NCBI RefSeq assembly: GCF_022690685.1 | Contig: NZ_JALCYY010000008.1 | Span: 1-64,000, forward strand | DNA from: Anaeromyxobacter terrae | Lineage (GTDB): Bacteria > Myxococcota > Myxococcia > Myxococcales > Anaeromyxobacteraceae | DNA: 64,000 nt | Direction: 5' to 3' | Shown: piece by piece, positions 27,657 to 37,406 of the stretch | Layout: each line of letters begins with the position of its first letter | How positions within the stretch are numbered: position 1 is the first letter of the stretch | Program-made: the position numbers and the translations under genes | The notes under the pieces: model-generated | What the model was told of the DNA's origin: nothing | What the model saw: only the letters and a program-made list of their open reading frames with translations | The model's database searches: none

Positions 27657-28944
27657 ATGCCAGCACGCCTTCTCCTTTTTGCAGGAGCGATCCTGTGGTT
27701 GCAGCTCGGATGTTCCGGAGGCGTGCCGGATCCTGCCAACGGCCCAGCGATCGAGGTGGCCAAGGCAGCTGCTTCCGGGACTTGCGGCCCAGAGCCAACC
27801 GACCCGTGCGTCACGCGTTGGCAGTGCTCGAAGGGCGTCTGGCGGCCGTTCGCATACGCGACCATCGAGACCCAGTGCGACGACGCGAACGGGTGCACGT
27901 ATGGCGACCATTGCGACGGTACGGGGACCTGCATCGGGACGCCGGTCATCTGCACGTCGGACGCGTGCACGACGCGAACCTGCAACGGCACGTCGTCGTG
28001 CGACGTGTCCTTCTGGGGACGTGACGCAGCCGCTGGCGCGCTTCAAGTACGACGCGCGGAACCGACGGATCGCGCGGCAGGACGCGGGCGGAGAGTGGAC
28101 GTACGTGATCTCCGATCCGGCCGGCAATCCGCTATCCGAGGTCGCCGTCGTGAACGGAAGCTGGTCGAGCGTGCGGGATTATGTGTGGCTCGACAGCCAA
28201 CCGCTCGCGCAGGTCGAGCAGGCCGCTGGGGTGAAGAACACCTACTACCTGCACGCGGACGCGCTCCAGACGCCTCGGGCGATGACGAATCAGGCCGGCG
28301 CGCTCGTCTGGAACACGATGGCGCGACCGTACGGCGACATCTCGGAGAAGACGTCGGTTGATCCGATCTCCGGGCGGACAGTGGTGACGAACTTGCGGCT
28401 CCCAGGCCAGTACGACGAGCGGCTGCTCGGGAGCGTGGGGCTCCAGGGGCCGTACTACAACTGGAACAGGTGGTATCTGCCTTCGGTTGGACGGTATCTG
28501 GAGTTGGACCCCATTGCGTTGATGGGAACCATCAATGGAACGTACGCGCCAGATTGGTATGGATACGCAAACCAGAATCCGCTGAGGTTCACGGATGCTG
28601 ACGGCACGAGTGCACTTGCCGATGCGTGCGCCAAGGCAATGGAGGAGGCGCGTGCGCGGGCAGCCCAAATCCGAGCACAGAAGGACTTCGCGGAAGCCTG
28701 GGGCTTCCTCGACGCGGGCCACAAGAAGAAGGCGCGGAACGCCCAGCACGGGCTGAGATATTGGCTCGACCGGGTGAAGAAGTACTGTCCATGTCCAGAC
28801 ACTCCCGAGGTGCGAGAGTGGGAGGGCTTGGTGAACTGGAACCCGGACAGCGTGCCAACGTCGAGGATGAACATTCGCGATAACCCGTGGCATCTCCCAA
28901 TCCCGGACTCTCCGCTCGGCCCGATGTTCCCGGGGTTGGGTTAG
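27657..28944 (+). pseudogene. Rhs-repeat protein remnant: lipoprotein leader joined out of frame to the Rhs core and C-terminal tip
   Basis: The 5' part (27657 to about 28016) encodes a lipoprotein signal (LLLFAGAILWLQLGCS) and a Cys-rich segment with CTYGDHCDGTGTCIGTPV, as at the front of myxobacterial Rhs proteins. GGAGG seven bases before ATG 27657 fixes the start. From about 28017 a different frame encodes Rhs sequence: YDARNRRIARQD, then PSVGRYLELDPIALMG and YGYANQNPLRFTDADG of the Rhs-associated core, and a ~100-residue variable tip ending at TAG 28942. The thousands of bases of YD repeats expected between them are missing, and the join is out of frame. So this is a deletion relic or displaced C-terminal cassette. 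Base composition is clearly lower in GC than neighbouring genes. Confidence 0.75.
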
Positions 28945-30835: not shown

Positions 30836-31168
30836 CTACAGCGTGATGACCTGATCCACCTTCGCGCCCGCGAGCGCCTTGTACAGGTCCGGGAAGCAGC
30901 CGATCGGAATCCCCTCGATGAGCTTGTCGGCGATCGCGCGCTGGTAACAGCACTGGTCGCAGCCCATGAGGAGCATGCCGCTCTTCCGCGCCACCGCGGC
31001 GAGCCGCTCGCCGGTGGGGTTGCCGCGCACGAGCAGGTAGTTGTTGTCGACGAAGAAGAACATCCCCACCACGTTCGCCCCGTGCCGACCCTCCTCGAGC
31101 TGCGGGACGATCATCTTCTCGAGGATGAAGGAGGCATTCGGCGTCGAGAACACGTACGCGACGTTCAT
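30836..31168 (-). CDS. DsrE-like sulfur-relay protein
   Basis: 110-residue protein with the DsrE/DsrF/TusD-type fold pattern: MNVAYVFSTPNASFILE as first strand-helix, VVGMFFFVDNNYLLVRGN as the next strand and loop, and a cysteine cluster GCDQCCYQR (C70, C73, C74) plus C91 in GIPIGCFPDLY. DsrE-family proteins carry sulfane sulfur on such a Cys. Its ATG overlaps the stop of the NifU-like gene, and it ends the hydrogenase operon that begins with a TusA-like gene. A sulfur hand-over role with TusA is inferred from family and context. Confidence 0.8.
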   Translation of the reverse strand: MNVAYVFSTPNASFILEKMIVPQLEEGRHGANVVGMFFFVDNNYLLVRGNPTGERLAAVARKSGMLLMGCDQCCYQRAIADKLIEGIPIGCFPDLYKALAGAKVDQVITL

Positions 31169-31512
31169 TCGGGATCCTCTCGGGTGAGCGCGGCGGCGTG
31201 GATCGCCGCGGCGACGAGCTCCGCGCGGACGAGGTGGCCGGGGTGGACGCCCGCGAGCGAGGCGCGCAGGCGCGGCGCGTCGAGCGCCGCCGGGGAGAGC
31301 CCTGCCTCGAGCGCGGCGCAGGCCACCTCGGCGTAGGCGATGAGCGAGGCGCAGCTCGTCGCGCGGAAGCGCGCGCGGACGACCCGTCCCCCGTCAGTCC
31401 ATAGCCCGACCGCCACCCTCCGATCGCCGTCCGCCGCCCGCCCCACGCGCGTCGCGCCGTCGAGCGGGCCGGCGTGCGCGGGATCGGAGAGGCAGTCGGC
31501 GACGGTTCGCAT
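31165..31512 (-). CDS. NifU/IscU-like scaffold-fold protein lacking the usual cysteines
   Basis: 115 residues resembling the NifU N-terminal (IscU) fold: VADCLSDPAHAGPL aligns with the family opening HFxNPRNxG, and VVRARFRATSCASLIAYAEV with the GCxxxIA block, keeping one Cys (C54). The first Cys motif (usually NPxCGD) is replaced by AADGDRR and the last Cys pair is absent, so classic Fe-S assembly is doubtful. ATG 31512 is used; GTG 31554 (VARQPEIGHL) is an alternative start. Its stop overlaps the DsrE-like start. A hydrogenase-specific or sulfur-carrier accessory role is inference. Confidence 0.65.
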   Translation of the reverse strand: MRTVADCLSDPAHAGPLDGATRVGRAADGDRRVAVGLWTDGGRVVRARFRATSCASLIAYAEVACAALEAGLSPAALDAPRLRASLAGVHPGHLVRAELVAAAIHAAALTREDPE

Positions 31513-31595: not shown

Positions 31596-32063
31596 TCACG
31601 GAATGGCGAGCGCGGCCACCGCCCGCCGCACGGCGAGGACAGCGGCGGGGATCGCCGCGGCGACGGCGGACGTGAGCCCCTCGCCCACCTCGTCGAGCTC
31701 CAGCGCCTCCACGGCCACCACCTCGATGCGCGACGGGACGGGCGCGCCGGCCGCCGCGGCGCGTGCGAGCGCAGAGGGAAGGCCGATCGCGTGGGGCGAC
31801 GGGCCCTCGGGCGCGTGGAGCGCGTCGAGCGGGAAGGCGAGGACCGTCCCGGGCGGATGCGCGCCGGTCCGCACCGCGTCCACCACCACGACGCGGTCGA
31901 AGCCCTCCATGTCGTCGAGGAGGTAGAGCCCGGCGGCGGCGCTCCGGCGGATCGTCATCCCCTCCGCGCCCTCGCGCACGAGCGCGTCGGCGATGTGGAG
32001 CGCGACCGCGTCGTCCTTGCGCAGCGCGTTCCCGAGGCAGAGGACGAGGACCTCCAAGGTCAC
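31596..32063 (-). CDS. [NiFe]-hydrogenase maturation endopeptidase (HyaD/HycI family)
   Basis: 155-residue protease that clips the C-terminus of the large subunit after nickel insertion. Family landmarks are LCLGNALRKDDAVALHIADAL (opening GNxLxxDDG-like motif, with Ala for the usual Gly), the nickel-sensing Asp in VVVDAVRTGA, and HAIGLPSAL. The GTG at 32063 overlaps the stop of mvhA, so it is translated with its substrate. It suggests the hydrogenase is matured and functional. Other maturation genes (hypA-F) are not in the window. Confidence 0.9.
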   Translation of the reverse strand: MTLEVLVLCLGNALRKDDAVALHIADALVREGAEGMTIRRSAAAGLYLLDDMEGFDRVVVVDAVRTGAHPPGTVLAFPLDALHAPEGPSPHAIGLPSALARAAAAGAPVPSRIEVVAVEALELDEVGEGLTSAVAAAIPAAVLAVRRAVAALAIP

Positions 32064-33577
32064 TCCCCCACCGCGGCGCCGGCGTCGGCATCCTCCGGGG
32101 TCACCCGGCGCCGGATCACCTCGCGCACCGCGCCATCCGCCCCGCGCACGGTGACGACGAGCGGCAGCTCGCCGGGGAGCGCGTGCGACGCGCAGGCGTT
32201 GCAGGGGTCGTAGGCGCGGAACGCCATCTCGAGCTGGTTCAGGAGCGCGGGATCGACCTTCCCGTTGCGGATGAGCCCCCGCGCCGCCTTGCGCACGGAG
32301 ATCTGCACCGGCGCGGCGTTGTGCTGCGAGGCGACGACGAGGTTCGCGGCGGTGAGGAGGCCGGCCGCGTCGGTGGCGTAGTGGTGGATGAGCGTGCCGC
32401 GCGGCGCCTCGACGACGCCGACCCCCTCGGACGGCCCCGCGAGCGGCGCGGGCACGGTCCGGACCTCGTCCGCCTCGCGCGCCTCGAGGGCCGGATCGGC
32501 CGCGAGCGCCTCGATCGCCTCCGCCGCCTGCAGCGCCTCCACGAGCCGCGCCCAGTGAAACGCGAGCGTCTGGTGGGCCGGCCAGCCGAGCGCGTCGAAG
32601 AGCCGCTGCCGCTCCGCCTCGGCGAGCGGCGTCGCCATCGTCCGCGCGACGTTGAGCCGGGCGAGCGGGCCGACGCGGTAGAGCCCGCTGTCGTCGCCCT
32701 CGGTGAACCCGGTCCAGCCCTTCGCCTTGAGGAAGGTGAGCTTCGCGTAGGTCCAGGGCTCGACCCGCTCGGCGAGGTGGAGGAGCCAGTCCTTCGGCTC
32801 GAACCGCGCGAGCTCGCCGCCCTGTGGGTCCACGATCCGCAGCACCCCGTCGAGGAAGGTGAGCCGCCCCGCCTCGTCCACCATGCCCATCGAGTGGCAG
32901 CGGACGCGGTACACCTCGCTCGAGAGCGCCTCGCCGTACTCGCCGCTCCCGAGCACCGCTGCGCGAAACGACTCGAGCGTGTCGGCCGCGAACCTGACGA
33001 GCCCGGGCGCGAGCTCGCGGGCGCGGCGGACCGTCCCGGGGTCGAGCGGGCGGGAGACGCCGCCGGGCAGCGCGAACACGGGGTGGATGGTGCGCCCCGC
33101 GATGGCGGCCATGAGCTCGCGCGCCTCCTTGCGGGCGCCGAGGATGCGCCGCCCGAGGTCCGCGCCGACCTTCGCGAGGACGCCGACGATGCTTCGCATC
33201 GGCGCGGGCGCCGAGGAGCCGGCGTAGAAGTCCGGCCCGCCCATGTACCAGTAGTGGAGGAGGTGATCCTCGAAGATGAACAGGTTGTAGTAGAGCGCCT
33301 GGATCTTGCGAGCCGCGGCGGGCGGGACGACGCCGTACAGCGCGTCGAGCGCGCGGGCGGCCGCGATGTGGTGCGCCGCCGGGCAGACGCCGCACACGTG
33401 GGCGGTGAGCTGCGGCATCTCCTCCGCCGGCCGGCCCACGCAGAAGCGCTCGAAGCCGCGCAGCTCCGGCACCTGCAGGAACGCGCTCTCGGCGTTCCCC
33501 TCTGCGTCGAGGAAGACCTCGATCTTGCCGTGGCCCTCGAGGCGTGTGATCGGGTCGATGGTGATCCGGCGCGTCAT
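32060..33577 (-). CDS. mvhA: [NiFe]-hydrogenase large subunit, group 3c type (MvhA-like)
   Basis: 505-residue catalytic subunit that splits or makes H2 at a NiFe(CN)2CO centre. The N-terminal nickel ligands are C62 and C65 in AHVCGVCPAAHH and the C-terminal pair is C459 and C462 in DPCNACASH. RLEGHGKIEV near the start is the usual opening signature. A tail of about 40 residues follows the C-terminal motif and would be removed by the protease encoded next. The ATG overlaps the stop of the fused small-subunit gene (ATGA). The MvhD-MvhG fusion and HdrA upstream place it with methanogen-type Mvh (group 3c) enzymes. Confidence 0.93.
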   Translation of the reverse strand: MTRRITIDPITRLEGHGKIEVFLDAEGNAESAFLQVPELRGFERFCVGRPAEEMPQLTAHVCGVCPAAHHIAAARALDALYGVVPPAAARKIQALYYNLFIFEDHLLHYWYMGGPDFYAGSSAPAPMRSIVGVLAKVGADLGRRILGARKEARELMAAIAGRTIHPVFALPGGVSRPLDPGTVRRARELAPGLVRFAADTLESFRAAVLGSGEYGEALSSEVYRVRCHSMGMVDEAGRLTFLDGVLRIVDPQGGELARFEPKDWLLHLAERVEPWTYAKLTFLKAKGWTGFTEGDDSGLYRVGPLARLNVARTMATPLAEAERQRLFDALGWPAHQTLAFHWARLVEALQAAEAIEALAADPALEAREADEVRTVPAPLAGPSEGVGVVEAPRGTLIHHYATDAAGLLTAANLVVASQHNAAPVQISVRKAARGLIRNGKVDPALLNQLEMAFRAYDPCNACASHALPGELPLVVTVRGADGAVREVIRRRVTPEDADAGAAVGE

Positions 33578-35052
33578 CCCTCGTCCTCCTCGGAGGCGGG
33601 CCGCACGCGCGCGGGCACGAGCCCGGCCGCGTACGAGTAGCGCCAGAACGTGCCCGCCGGATCGGGCAGCGCGTCCGCGAGCGCGAGCACCTCCGCCTCG
33701 CCGCCCGCGAAGAGCGACGCGAACGCGGACAGCATCGCCGCGCCCGGGTCGCGCACGCCGTCGAGCGGGCCGAAGCAGCCGCGGCACGGCATGCCCGCCT
33801 CGACGCAGCCCGGCTGGCAGCCCGCCCGCGTCCCCGGCCCGAGGCAGACGAGCCCCTGGGCGAGGAAGCAGCGCTCCGGGTCGACGGCGGAGGTGGCGAT
33901 GCGGCGGAGGGACTCGACCTCGAGCCGCTCCGGGCGCGAGCCCTTGCGCGGGCAGCCGTCGCAGAGGGCGACGTTCGGCGCGAGCACCGCGCCCCGGGGC
34001 GGCGGGGAGTCGCCGAGCAGCGCGTCGAGCGCGGCCTCGACGATGGCCGGCGAGGGCGGGCAGCCCGGGACGGTGTAGTCCACCGGGACGACGTCGGCGA
34101 GCGGGAGCGCGCGGGCAAGGAGCACGGGCAGCGAGAGGCCGGCTCCCCCGGCGACCGGGCCGCCCGGGAGCGGCGCGTCCGGGTTCGAGACAGACGCCGG
34201 CCGCCGGTAGGCGGCGTCGAGGAGCTCCGCGGGCGAGGACAGGTTGCCGAGCCCGACCACGCCGCCCATGTGCGCGCACGCGCCGAACGAGACGAGCATG
34301 CGCGCCTTGCGCCGCAGGAGCCGCGACCACTCGTCCTGCTCGGTGAGGCGCACCGCGCCGTTCACGAACGCGACGTCGATCCCCCCGTCGGGCAGCGCCT
34401 CGACGTCGGCCCGCTTGTGATCGAACGCCACCGGCCAGAGCACCACCTCGACGCGCTCGAGCAGGGACGCGAGCCCCTCGCCGAGATCCATCACCGCCTC
34501 CTCGCAGCCGCCGCAGGAGGCGTTCCAGTAGAAGGCGACGCGCGGCTTGCCGGGCGCGCGCGGCGGGTATTCCGCGCGGCGGGCGAGCGACGCGTCGAGC
34601 GGCACCGGAGCGTCCTCGAGCGCCTCGCCCACGCCCTCGAGCGCGCGGGCGGAGTAGGCGAGCGGCCCGAGCGCGCGGAGCGCCTCGGTCATCTCGCGCA
34701 CGGTCGCGGCGAAGCGCTCGCCCTCCGCCGCGCTCGCCCAGGCGATCCGGAAGCGCGCGGGCTCGATGCCCGCCTGCTCGAGGGCGCGCACGAGCACCGC
34801 GTGGCGCGCGGCGGCCCTGAGGTTGCCGTCCAGGTAGTGGCAGTCGCCGGGGTGGCACCCCGCGACGAGCACGCCGTCCGCGCCCTCGCGGAATGCCTGG
34901 AGCACGAAGGCCGGCTCGACCCGCCCGGTGCACATGACGCGTACGGTGAGGAGACTCTGCGGGTACTCGATCCGCGCCTGTCCGGCGCGGTCGGCGGCGG
35001 AGTACGCGCACCAGCTGCAGAGGAACGCGACGATGCGGGGCTCGTGCGGCAC
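33574..35052 (-). CDS. MvhD-MvhG fusion: hydrogenase delta subunit joined to small subunit
   Basis: 492 residues. Residues 1-~130 match MvhD (FlpD), the [2Fe-2S] link between hydrogenase and HdrA: FLCSWCAYSAADRAG (C12, C15), VRVMCTGRVEP (C41) and GCHPGDCHYLDGN (C66, C71). After a ~35-residue linker, residues ~169-492 are the hydrogenase small subunit: WNASCGGCEE (C180, C183), FGACAHMGG, VPGCPPSPA and a Cys-rich end with CDGCPRKG and PCRGCFGP, giving ligands for three clusters. These are separate proteins in methanogens. GTG 35052 is five bases after the hdrA stop; the end overlaps mvhA. I checked that no stop or frame change lies between the two parts. Confidence 0.9.
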   Translation of the reverse strand: MPHEPRIVAFLCSWCAYSAADRAGQARIEYPQSLLTVRVMCTGRVEPAFVLQAFREGADGVLVAGCHPGDCHYLDGNLRAAARHAVLVRALEQAGIEPARFRIAWASAAEGERFAATVREMTEALRALGPLAYSARALEGVGEALEDAPVPLDASLARRAEYPPRAPGKPRVAFYWNASCGGCEEAVMDLGEGLASLLERVEVVLWPVAFDHKRADVEALPDGGIDVAFVNGAVRLTEQDEWSRLLRRKARMLVSFGACAHMGGVVGLGNLSSPAELLDAAYRRPASVSNPDAPLPGGPVAGGAGLSLPVLLARALPLADVVPVDYTVPGCPPSPAIVEAALDALLGDSPPPRGAVLAPNVALCDGCPRKGSRPERLEVESLRRIATSAVDPERCFLAQGLVCLGPGTRAGCQPGCVEAGMPCRGCFGPLDGVRDPGAAMLSAFASLFAGGEAEVLALADALPDPAGTFWRYSYAAGLVPARVRPASEEDEG

Positions 35053-35057
35053 TCCGG

Positions 35058-37004
35058 CTATCCCCCGCTCTCCGGCGCGCCGCGGAGGAGCGCCGAGATC
35101 TCCGCCGCGATCTGCGCACCGGTGAAGTGCCGCGCGGTCGCCGCGCCGGCAGGGCACGCGGCGACGCAGGTGCCGCAGCCGCGGCAGTGCACCGCCGCCA
35201 CGAGGGCCCGCCCGGTCGCGGGGTCGAGCGCGACGGCGCCGAAGGGGCAGGCCGCGACGCACACCGCGCAGCCGCCGCAGCGGGCCTGGTCGATCTCGGC
35301 GGCGAGCGGCTCGAGCGGCAGGAGATCGCCGGGGGCGAGCGAGGCGAGCACGAGCCCGGCCGCGGCGGCGCCGTCGCGGATCGCCTCGTGGATGGGACGC
35401 GGGCCGGCGGCCGCGCCGGCGACGTAGATGCCAGCGAAGCGCGTGGCGGTCGGCTCGAACGGGCTCGCGCCGCGGTCCGCGAGGAATCCGCGCGCGTCGG
35501 CGTCGATCCGGAGGAGCCGCGCGAGCGCCGCGGCCCCGTCGGCGGCGCGCGCGGGCGCGTGGACCGCGACGAGATCGGCCGTCCAGATGGCCCCGTCGGA
35601 GAGCCGCGCGCGCACGCCGTCCGCGGACGCCTCGAGCGCGCCGGGAACGAGCGCGCCGGGCAGGAGCTCCACCCCGCCTGCCGCGAGGGCCGCCGCCCGC
35701 CGCGCCCCTCCGGGCGCGCGCTCGATCCCGCCCGCCACCGCGACCCGCGCGGATGGCAGGCGCGCGCGGAGCCGGCCCGCGAGCTTCAGGAGCTCCTCCG
35801 CGGGGAGGGTCCCGTCCTCGTCGGCCGTCGCGGCGAGCAGCACCGCGCGCGGTGGCCGCCCGCCCACGCCGCGCAGCTCGCCTCCCGTCGGGCCGTCCGG
35901 GTGCAGCATCCGCTCGAGCGCATACGTCGAGACGACGCCGTCCGGCCCGGCCACCTCACCCGGCCGCATCCCGGTCGCGACCACGATCGCGCCGACGGTG
36001 AGCTCGCGGGTGCGGCCCGGCTCGTCCAGCCGGACCGCGCCGAACGGGCAGGCGCGGGCGCAGGCGTCGCAGGCCTCGCCCCGGGTGCGCAGGCACGCCA
36101 CGCGGTCGATCGCGGAGGCGTGCGGGAGCGCGCCCGGGTACGGGACGCCGATTGCCTTCCGCGCCGGACCGCCGTCGGGGTCGGCGCGCAGGGCCGGGCA
36201 GGCCGCGCTGCACGCTCCGCAGCCGAGGCAGACCGCGGGATCGACGCCGCGCGGGGAGATCGCGAGCTCCACCGCGAACCGGCCGTGGGCGCCGCGCACG
36301 CGGCGGAGCTCGGCGCCGGTCAGCACCTCGATCCGCTCGGAGTGGAGCACCTCGTCGAGCACCGGCTCCATGAAGCAGCTCGCGCACTCCCCCGCGGGGA
36401 AGATCTCGTCCAGCCGGTTCGCGAGCCCGCCGAGCGCGAACGCGCGCTCGACGAGGAAGACCCGGCGATCGCGCCGCGCGATCGCCCGCGCGGCCGCGAC
36501 CCCCGCGGCGCCGCCACCGACGACGAGGACGTCGGGCGAGGCCGCCACCTCCTCGCGGGGGATCGGCCGGTGCAGCCGGACCCGCGCGAGCCCCGCCGAG
36601 AGGAGCCGGCGCGCCCGCTCGGTGGCGACGCCGGGATCCCCGCCCACCCACTCGACCTGCTCGCGCAGGTTCACGAGCTGCAGGTGCTCCGGCGAGCGGC
36701 CCGCCTCCGCGAGCACCGCCCGGAACGTCGCCTCGTGCTCCCGCGGCGAGCAGGCGCCGACGACGACGCGCTCGAGACCCCGCTCCCGGATCCGGGCGGC
36801 GAGCCAGGCCTTCCCCTCCTCGGAGCACAGCACGTCGTGGATGGCGACGTCGCCCGCGCCGGGCCACGCCGCCGGATCAGCGAGCGGACCGAGGCGGACC
36901 ACCTCCCCCAGGTTCGGGCCGCAGCGGCAGAGGTACACGCCGGTCGCCCGCTGCTCCGTCTCCGGAGTGGCCTCGGTCGGGCCCGGCTTCCGCGCTCCGC
37001 TCAC
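35058..37004 (-). CDS. hdrA: HdrA-like FAD/iron-sulfur subunit of heterodisulfide-reductase type complex
   Basis: 648-residue flavoprotein. Order: an N-terminal HdrA domain with YLCRCGPNLG (C26, C28), C60, and VVGACSPREHE (C85); a Rossmann FAD site LVVGGGAAG (about 161-169); AGECASC; a [4Fe-4S] block CLGCGACSAACP; CDACARACPFGAV; and a C-terminal two-cluster ferredoxin with CGGCAVCVAACPFG and CRGCGTCVAACPAG. In methanogens HdrA bifurcates electrons from Mvh to ferredoxin and HdrB. No HdrB or HdrC gene is present here, so the final acceptor is unknown. GTG 37004 is preceded by the TusA-like stop five bases away. Confidence 0.9.
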   Translation of the reverse strand: MSGARKPGPTEATPETEQRATGVYLCRCGPNLGEVVRLGPLADPAAWPGAGDVAIHDVLCSEEGKAWLAARIRERGLERVVVGACSPREHEATFRAVLAEAGRSPEHLQLVNLREQVEWVGGDPGVATERARRLLSAGLARVRLHRPIPREEVAASPDVLVVGGGAAGVAAARAIARRDRRVFLVERAFALGGLANRLDEIFPAGECASCFMEPVLDEVLHSERIEVLTGAELRRVRGAHGRFAVELAISPRGVDPAVCLGCGACSAACPALRADPDGGPARKAIGVPYPGALPHASAIDRVACLRTRGEACDACARACPFGAVRLDEPGRTRELTVGAIVVATGMRPGEVAGPDGVVSTYALERMLHPDGPTGGELRGVGGRPPRAVLLAATADEDGTLPAEELLKLAGRLRARLPSARVAVAGGIERAPGGARRAAALAAGGVELLPGALVPGALEASADGVRARLSDGAIWTADLVAVHAPARAADGAAALARLLRIDADARGFLADRGASPFEPTATRFAGIYVAGAAAGPRPIHEAIRDGAAAAGLVLASLAPGDLLPLEPLAAEIDQARCGGCAVCVAACPFGAVALDPATGRALVAAVHCRGCGTCVAACPAGAATARHFTGAQIAAEISALLRGAPESGG

Positions 37005-37008
37005 TCTC

Positions 37009-37236
37009 TCAGTACTGGATCTGGATGACGACCCTCTGCGCGTCGGGACGGACGGACAGCAGCGTCTTCTTGCGCCGCTCGCAGAAGGTCCGGATGTCCT
37101 TCTCGAACGTCGGGCAGTCGCCAACGATTTCCACGACCGTCCCGGCGGGCGTCTCCGCGGTCTCGACGGCGAGCTTCAGCACCGGCTGAGGGCAGCGCAT
37201 CCCGGAGCAGTCGATCCGCATGAAATTCGAGGCCAC
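37009..37236 (-). CDS. TusA/SirA-like sulfur carrier protein
   Basis: 75 residues with the TusA signature RCPQPVLKLA; C15 of the CPxP motif is the persulfide-carrying Cys, and a second Cys (C10) precedes it. GTG 37236 has an AAGGAG ribosome site ten bases upstream and is preferred over ATG 37221. The protein continues with VVEIVGDCPTFEKDIRTFC, the usual beta-alpha fold end, with two additional Cys. It is the first gene of the HdrA-hydrogenase operon. TusA-type proteins also accompany sulfur-oxidising Hdr-like complexes, which supports a shared sulfur role. Confidence 0.87.
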   Translation of the reverse strand: MASNFMRIDCSGMRCPQPVLKLAVETAETPAGTVVEIVGDCPTFEKDIRTFCERRKKTLLSVRPDAQRVVIQIQY

Positions 37237-37406
37237 TGGAGACGTTCTCCTTGCGAGGACGCGAGACGCTCGGCCGGTGGTGATCGCCGCGGCGGCGCTT
37301 CGAGCGGGCCTTACGCGGCCCGACATTACCATCAAACGATCGCCGACACGGACCGTGAGCGGGGATGCGCCGCGGCGCCGCACCAGGCACCCGCCCGGTC
37401 GTCCGC

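What the first reader, a model, noticed from the sequence alone, without database searches (positions are those of the whole stretch)
33574..35052. MvhD and MvhG fused in one polypeptide
Residues 1-130 hold the delta-subunit cysteines and residues 169-492 the small-subunit cluster ligands in one uninterrupted frame. In methanogens these are separate chains. The fusion fixes the [2Fe-2S] delta domain on the small subunit and so hard-wires the path from NiFe site to HdrA.
Basis: seen in the sequence. Interest (0 to 1): 0.5.

Follow-up and report, generated by a model that had tools for sequence, protein, structure and literature searches.

The report
Fused hydrogenase subunit feeding stripped HdrA
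A bacterium joins two normally separate electron-carrying hydrogenase subunits into one protein, beside a partner enzyme that seems to have lost the iron-sulfur wire to its usual acceptor, which suggests that electrons from hydrogen go somewhere new.

Summary
The fusion is real. The gene lies on the minus strand, 35052->33574 (GTG start, 492 aa): an MvhD domain (5 of 5 cluster cysteines), a 34-residue, partly disordered linker, and a full MvhG domain (12 of 12 ligands). One uninterrupted frame is kept in 12 genomes of the phylum (Myxococcota), with eight linker lengths; a thirteenth is partial. The fused MvhG rows form one clade (100/100). Elsewhere, 0 of 80 loci and 0 of 45 genomes of another phylum showed it. 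I saw no report of this fusion in the open-access papers searched; HdrA-MvhD fusions are known. The adjacent HdrA lacks all four cysteines of what I infer to be its flavin-domain cluster (11 of 11 fused-lineage sequences; 0 of 56 others lack them all). No HdrC scores over cut-off in the genome, none of its three best CCG-domain loci looks like HdrB, and tusA accompanies the operon in 11 of 11 fused loci with flank. Best reading: a dedicated, HdrBC-free hydrogenase-HdrA complex, probably not bifurcating in the methanogen way, exchanging electrons with ferredoxin and/or TusA-bound sulfur. The acceptor is inferred, not shown.

The parts
33574..35052 (-). mvhDG fusion: MvhD (FlpD) domain residues 1-133, linker 134-167, MvhG (small subunit) domain 168-492
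34552..34653 (-). linker of the fusion (residues 134-167), middle predicted disordered, length variable among relatives
35058..37004 (-). HdrA-like flavoprotein (GTG start at 37004, about 648 aa, start chosen by hand); keeps N-terminal, inserted and C-terminal Fe-S cysteines, lacks the four cysteines of the CxGSRD..CSxxCC motif
32060..33577 (-). MvhA-like [NiFe] large subunit; L1 motif HVCGVC (Arg/Lys replaced by His), L2 motif DPCNAC; overlaps mvhDG by 4 bases (ATGA)
31596..32063 (-). hydrogenase maturation protease (HycI/HyaD type)
37009..37383 (-). TusA-like sulfur carrier (ORF; conserved part from about 37221), directly upstream of hdrA
31165..31512 (-). NifU N-domain-like protein (just under Pfam cut-off); also found beside the operon in one relative (G007)
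30836..31168 (-). SaoD/DsrE family protein (NF040913 over cut-off); also found beside the operon in one relative (G007)

Best explanation
The gene encodes a single-chain electron arm of a cytoplasmic MvhADG-type [NiFe] hydrogenase (group 3c-like, a label I recall): electrons pass between the NiFe site of MvhA, three [4Fe-4S] clusters of the MvhG domain, the [2Fe-2S] cluster of the tethered MvhD domain, and the ferredoxin domain/FAD of the adjacent HdrA. The tether makes MvhD a dedicated part of the hydrogenase instead of an exchangeable connector. The HdrA of this lineage has lost what I infer to be the flavin-domain [4Fe-4S] cluster that leads to HdrC/HdrB, and HdrBC were not found, so the complex is an HdrBC-free hydrogenase-HdrA module that probably does not bifurcate in the methanogen way and exchanges electrons with ferredoxin through the inserted ferredoxin domain and/or with a TusA-bound sulfur substrate. 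Shown from sequence: fusion, ligand conservation, single origin, motif loss, no HdrC over cut-off, TusA linkage. Inferred: complex formation, electron path, which cluster was lost, loss of bifurcation, acceptor, direction.
For: Fusion in 12 complete copies plus one partial; all 17 Fe-S cysteines kept; confident model, pLDDT 84.0, pTM 0.83, whose two parts match 5odc_E (TM 0.90 by target) and 5odh_D/5odc_D (0.92/0.91). Conserved order tusA-hdrA-mvhDG-mvhA-protease in the genus where contigs allow. One FlpD match in the whole genome. HdrA (best-scoring per locus): 0 of 4 motif cysteines in 11 of 11 fused-lineage sequences; 55 of 56 others have all four and one (L008) has three; the other cluster cysteines are invariant or nearly so over 41 rows; the fold is confident without the motif (pLDDT 90.9, pTM 0.86) and matches methanogen HdrA best. 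No HdrC over cut-off in the genome (best 22.4 against 160 bits); no CCG-domain match on the window's contig; the three best CCG loci are closest to GlcF, LdhH and TfrB models, none over cut-off, with HdrB models far below. In methanogens the high-potential electron goes to HdrBC via the flavin-domain cluster (passages of PMC9012536; HA4 in PMC12350162).
Against: No biochemical or expression data. That the lost CxGSRD..CSxxCC motif ligates HA4 is my inference from published domain descriptions and from the other conserved cysteines being accounted for; no coordinates were inspected, nor was the relative placement of the two domains in the model. An HdrBC partner too diverged for these models, or a different acceptor protein, cannot be excluded; further CCG places (contigs C83, C94, C2, C77) were not annotated. 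Without bifurcation, H2-driven ferredoxin reduction is unfavourable at low H2, so the direction may be H2 formation.
Confidence: 0.72

Rival explanations
1. H2-dependent sulfur module (one of the two acceptor readings left open above): TusA docks on HdrA in place of HdrBC and its persulfide (or disulfide) is reduced with electrons from H2.
For: tusA beside hdrA/mvhDG in 11 of 11 fused loci with flank (window plus 10); between hdrA and mvhDG in G010 and G070, so it follows the hydrogenase rather than ptsN; at ptsN in 10 relatives without this operon tusA was not found in 9 and is a 33-residue remnant in one (G017), while G008 has ptsN-tusA-hdrA. Three cysteines (CPxP, DC, [FW]C) in 15 of 15 linked TusAs (sequences printed). 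tusA and an HdrB-type gene were not seen together in 53 loci with enough flank (11 tusA only, 27 HdrB-type only, 15 neither; Fisher p 1e-4).
Against: 8 of those 11 belong to the fused clade; without them 3 of 45 have tusA and p is 0.058. The tusA-linked unfused loci (5 of the 80) keep the flavin-domain cysteines in the 4 with a complete HdrA, so tusA linkage does not need the cluster loss. Several HdrB-type calls are weak profile hits. TusA could instead serve cofactor assembly. No activity known.
Confidence: 0.3
2. Non-bifurcating H2:ferredoxin oxidoreductase, working in either direction (for example H2 release from reduced ferredoxin), TusA being incidental (the other acceptor reading).
For: Inserted and C-terminal ferredoxin cysteines kept while the motif of the HdrBC branch is lost; no HdrC over cut-off.
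Against: Does not explain the conserved tusA linkage. In G010 and G070 one cysteine of the first inserted cluster is replaced (alignments).
Confidence: 0.38
3. Ordinary bifurcating MvhADG-HdrABC complex with HdrBC encoded elsewhere; the fusion is a neutral change.
For: HdrA and Mvh parts are clear homologues of the methanogen complex. Not all CCG-domain places of the genome were annotated.
Against: Motif cysteines lost in 11 of 11, GPK to GPR in 11 of 11; no HdrC over cut-off; the three CCG loci examined are closest to other families.
Confidence: 0.07
4. Artefact: two genes joined by a sequencing or assembly error or by a missed stop.
For: Stops are rare in this DNA, so an open linker is weak evidence in one genome.
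Against: 12 genomes, five of them single-contig assemblies (G002, G004, G006, G007, G010), with eight linker lengths all in frame.
Confidence: 0.02

Closest known systems
MvhAGD-HdrABC of methanogens (PDB 5ODC, Methanothermococcus thermolithotrophicus)
   Same: Homologous MvhG, MvhD and HdrA by sequence and fold and a VhuA-like MvhA; all ligand cysteines of MvhD and MvhG; N-terminal, inserted and C-terminal cluster cysteines of HdrA
   Different: MvhD and MvhG are one chain here; HdrA lacks the CxGSRD..CSxxCC cysteines; HdrBC not found; TusA and a maturation protease in the operon; MvhA L1 Arg/Lys is His
HdrA-MvhD fusions (HdrA2 / type Ia; Methanosarcina, Archaeoglobus, Desulfotomaculum ruminis and others)
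   Same: MvhD fixed by fusion to a neighbour in the electron chain
   Different: There MvhD is joined to HdrA (at its C-terminus in type Ia), here to the N-terminus of the hydrogenase small subunit (PMC2702500, PMC12054007, PMC3569383, PMC6397845, passages)
Unfused bacterial mvhD-mvhG-mvhA loci near hdrA with tusA (loci L005, L034, L050, L053, L080)
   Same: Same parts, tusA near, no HdrB-type gene found in the stretch held
   Different: Separate mvhD and mvhG; motif cysteines of HdrA kept in the 4 with complete HdrA
sHdr (Hdr-like) sulfur oxidation system
   Same: HdrA-like flavoprotein genetically linked to TusA/DsrE sulfur carriers (PMC6067878 passages); PDB 6tjr, an HdrA-like subunit, is a weaker structural match
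   Different: It has HdrB/C-like subunits and a lipoate-binding protein and, as I recall, no hydrogenase; no CCG-domain (HdrB-type) match on the window's contig; the lipoate-binding protein was not searched for

Membership tests
Group 3c-type MvhADG [NiFe] hydrogenase | MvhA with CxxC pairs L1 and L2 | tested here: met
   H[VI]CGVC and DPCNAC in 13 of 13 fused-lineage MvhA; note His where unfused rows have Arg or Lys
Group 3c-type MvhADG [NiFe] hydrogenase | MvhG small subunit with three [4Fe-4S] sites (12 Cys) | tested here: met
Group 3c-type MvhADG [NiFe] hydrogenase | MvhD with [2Fe-2S] site (5 conserved Cys) | tested here: met
Group 3c-type MvhADG [NiFe] hydrogenase | MvhD and MvhG as separate subunits | tested here: not met
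   fused in one frame in 12 of 12 complete copies
Group 3c-type MvhADG [NiFe] hydrogenase | HydDB subgroup assignment | not tested
   HydDB not available; 'group 3c' is recalled
Electron-bifurcating MvhADG-HdrABC complex | HdrA with the flavin-domain (HA4) cluster leading to HdrC | tested here: not met
   0 of 4 motif cysteines in 11 of 11; assignment of the motif to HA4 is inferred
Electron-bifurcating MvhADG-HdrABC complex | HdrC present | tested here: not met
   no match over cut-off in the whole genome (control over cut-off in 2 of 14 genomes)
Electron-bifurcating MvhADG-HdrABC complex | HdrB present | tested here: inconclusive
   no CCG match on the window's contig; three best CCG loci closest to GlcF/LdhH/TfrB; places on four further contigs not annotated
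Electron-bifurcating MvhADG-HdrABC complex | H2-driven bifurcation to disulfide and ferredoxin | not testable with these tools
   needs purified complex
sHdr sulfur-oxidation system | hdrC1B1A-hyp-C2B2 gene set | tested here: not met
   no CCG-domain match on the window's contig
sHdr sulfur-oxidation system | lbpA (lipoate-binding protein) | not tested
   not searched

The most novel reading that the evidence does not exclude
A rewired hydrogenase-HdrA machine in which HdrBC and the high-potential branch were discarded and the small carrier protein TusA took the place of HdrBC, so that H2 drives reduction of a TusA-bound persulfide or disulfide (or, in reverse, sulfur oxidation yields H2); the MvhD-MvhG fusion locks the connector to this one use.
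Probability: 0.22. Interest if true: 0.75.

Novelty: new variant of a known kind. Interest (0 to 1): 0.52.

Why it matters
HdrA complexes are models of flavin-based electron bifurcation, where two output branches are needed. A natural lineage that keeps the input arm (with its connector fused on), FAD and the ferredoxin branch but has lost the cysteines of the other branch is a ready-made test of what that branch does, and of whether HdrA can work as a plain H2-linked oxidoreductase. It also points to TusA as a possible HdrA partner beside a hydrogenase.

Tried and rejected
Considered and rejected: sequencing or assembly artefact; missed stop or separate start inside the linker (two in-frame GTG codons exist in the window's own linker, but 5 of 12 rows have no start codon there); read-through making fusions elsewhere (in L183 and L193 a joined frame appears only if the TGA between the genes is read as a residue). 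tusA as a mere ptsN neighbour: argued against by gene order in G010 and G070 and by its absence at ptsN in relatives without this operon. A sigma-54 promoter near this rpoN-linked operon: 10 matches in the window against 10.65 expected, none between hdrA and ptsN. TusA-HdrB exclusion is not significant once the fused clade is removed. Papers: ten searches; for most hits I saw the listing only. Passages were seen of PMC2702500, PMC9012536, PMC12142623, PMC6397845, PMC6019823, PMC12350162, PMC12054007, PMC6067878, PMC4153887, PMC4320612, PMC3569383, PMC6478937 and PMC8528874; no paper was read whole. None of these passages describes an MvhD-MvhG fusion; subscription papers were not covered. Script slips: one search missed 4 of 13 fused rows through a narrow pattern and one search stopped on L134; both were redone. 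One search printed only the commonest L1 variants and one search used a narrow pattern; one search counted all rows. Rows dropped before counts: loci L156, L157, L159 (duplicates of L061, L059, L076); G rows under 200 aa; HdrA rows outside 500-900 aa; MvhA rows under 380 aa; for structure alignment A1 68 of the 88 references listed were given, for A2 41 of the 60 listed (the window's own reference with corrected ends).
Full report
WHAT IS THERE. The interval 33574-35052 holds one gene on the minus strand, GTG at 35052, stop ending at 33574, 492 aa. Pfam finds FlpD (MvhD) at 7-129 and Oxidored_q6 (MvhG) at 180-344. The best solved relatives are the separate chains MvhG (5odc_E, residues 171-483, E 1.9e-62) and MvhD (9sw2_D, 5odc_D; within residues 4-133). 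All 17 cysteines expected as ligands are conserved. An AlphaFold2 model from a 68-row alignment has pLDDT 84.0 and pTM 0.83, with residues 138-153 and 475-492 under pLDDT 50; its two parts match 5odc_E (TM 0.90 by target length) and 5odh_D (0.92). The relative placement of the two parts was not compared with the methanogen complex.

IS IT REAL. In 60 relatives and 195 genomes of the phylum, a single open frame with no stop covers both domains in 12 genomes: the window's own G000 and G001-G007 (same genus), G010, G012, G022 (same family) and G070 (another family). G020 is cut by its contig end but runs from the MvhD C-terminus into MvhG; G015 is cut inside MvhG and undecided; G008 (same genus, 66% complete) has ptsN-tusA-hdrA but gave no mvhDG match. 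Nine other genomes of the phylum (G061, G062, G064, G065, G165, G166, G167, G188, G193) have mvhG and mvhD as separate frames, and G016, same family, has a more distant separate pair. The phylum is Myxococcota: contig G065:C25, same phylum as the window, has the same length (404517) as the named Myxococcota record behind L076. A genus such as Anaeromyxobacter is my guess from memory. Linkers differ in length (eight values, 21-47 aa as cut) yet always keep frame; their GC by codon position is of coding type (0.93/0.69/0.96 against 0.78/0.55/0.97 in the domains); and 5 of 12 have no in-frame ATG/GTG/TTG that could start a separate MvhG. Lack of stops alone would not convince: by composition it has a chance of about 0.20, and the other frames are also free of stops.

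HOW RARE. In 345 genomes drawn from the phylum of the genome behind L005, 45 have a match at E 1e-60 and no fused frame was seen: the 7 matches that span both domains all contain stops; of the shorter matches, 5 with long frames were opened and are separate, or without a detected MvhD (L188); second copies in G265 and G228 were not opened, and the rest have frames too short for both domains. In the MvhG tree of 99 rows the 13 fused-lineage rows form one clade, support 100/100, stem 0.64, next to unfused loci in an unresolved fork. The simplest reading is one fusion, early in this branch of Myxococcota.

THE OPERON. Order on the minus strand: rpoN - hpf - ptsN - tusA - hdrA - mvhDG - mvhA - protease, found also in the same-genus loci L125-L131 and, up to mvhA where the contig ends, in G012. 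In G010 and G070 tusA lies between hdrA and mvhDG. In the window and, of the loci examined, in G007 only, a NifU-like and a SaoD/DsrE-family gene follow (some contigs end soon after the protease). MvhA keeps both CxxC pairs, but the residue before L1 is His in 13 of 13 fused-lineage rows and in G015, against 58 Arg and 14 Lys in the other 72 unfused rows that cover it (4 have a gap). The genome has a single FlpD match, so MvhD is probably not shared.

WHAT HAPPENED TO HdrA. Taking the best-scoring HdrA of each locus, 56 unfused rows (52 + 4 tusA-linked) keep the motif CxGSRD..CSxxCC (55 with four cysteines, L008 with three), while the 11 fused-lineage rows have none of the four. The Lys of GPKDIP is Arg in 11 of 11 (Lys in 51 of 52 others; Gly, Met or Val in the 4 tusA-linked unfused rows). 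The other cluster cysteines are invariant or nearly so over 41 rows; in G010 and G070 one cysteine of the first inserted cluster is replaced. The model is confident (pLDDT 90.9, pTM 0.86) and its best matches are methanogen HdrA chains. Published descriptions place one Fe-S cluster in the thioredoxin-reductase (flavin) domain and send high-potential electrons through it (HA4) to HdrBC (passages of PMC12054007, PMC9012536, PMC12350162). I infer that the lost motif is this cluster. Consistently, HdrC is absent over cut-off, the window's contig has no CCG-domain match, and the three best CCG loci are closest to GlcF, LdhH and TfrB models; CCG places on four further contigs were not annotated.

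TusA. It is next to hdrA/mvhDG in the window and in 10 of 10 fused loci with sufficient flank; two fused loci (L132, L135) are too short to tell. At ptsN in ten relatives without this operon (G016 among them, which has a distant unfused pair elsewhere) it was not found in nine, and G017 keeps a 33-residue remnant, as if tusA went with the operon. In 53 loci with at least 4.5 kb and 2.5 kb of flank: 11 tusA only, 27 HdrB-type only, 15 neither, 0 both; p 1e-4, but 0.058 without the fused clade. The linked TusAs share three cysteines in 15 of 15; of two paralogues in the same genome, read by eye, one lacks the DC cysteine and the other has neither the DC nor the [FW]C one.

MECHANISM. H2 <-> NiFe (MvhA) <-> three cubanes (MvhG domain) <-> [2Fe-2S] (MvhD domain) <-> HdrA ferredoxin domain/FAD <-> inserted ferredoxin domain <-> ferredoxin, with TusA a candidate partner. 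The arm that carries the MvhD homologue moves during catalysis in a methanogen complex (PMC12350162 passage), so tethering MvhD to MvhG would keep the arm as one body; it would also remove the sharing of MvhD with formate dehydrogenase or Elp described for methanogens. The fusion is shown; assembly, path and acceptor are inferred.

NOVELTY. HdrA-MvhD fusions are in print (PMC2702500, PMC12054007, PMC6397845, PMC3569383 passages). I saw no description of an MvhD-MvhG fusion (searches; listings, and passages of 13 papers), in an open-access library only. It is a new variant of a known kind; the HdrA change makes it more interesting than the fusion alone.

Noticed in passing
window 32060-33577 (minus): The L1 motif of MvhA reads HVCGVC: His in 13 of 13 fused-lineage rows plus G015; the other 72 unfused rows covering it have Arg (58) or Lys (14).
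   Followed up: partly
window 30836-31512 (minus): SaoD/DsrE-family and NifU-like genes follow the operon; of the relatives examined only G007 also has them there.
   Followed up: partly
L167 (G017), around 1931-2116: A 33-residue tusA remnant after ptsN in a genome without this operon, suggesting that tusA decayed with it.
   Followed up: yes
L005, L034, L050, L053, L080: Unfused mvh/hdrA loci from three phyla also have a tusA gene near and no HdrB-type gene in the stretch held; their HdrA keeps the motif cysteines in the 4 complete cases, but the Lys of GPKDIP is replaced.
   Followed up: partly
L193 (G477), mvhD: A TGA codon inside mvhD at a conserved cysteine (GUHLGECHY), probably selenocysteine.
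   Followed up: no
window 27679-28944 (plus): An open frame with an RHS-repeat-like core (recognised by eye, no search run) that looks truncated at its N-terminus.
   Followed up: no
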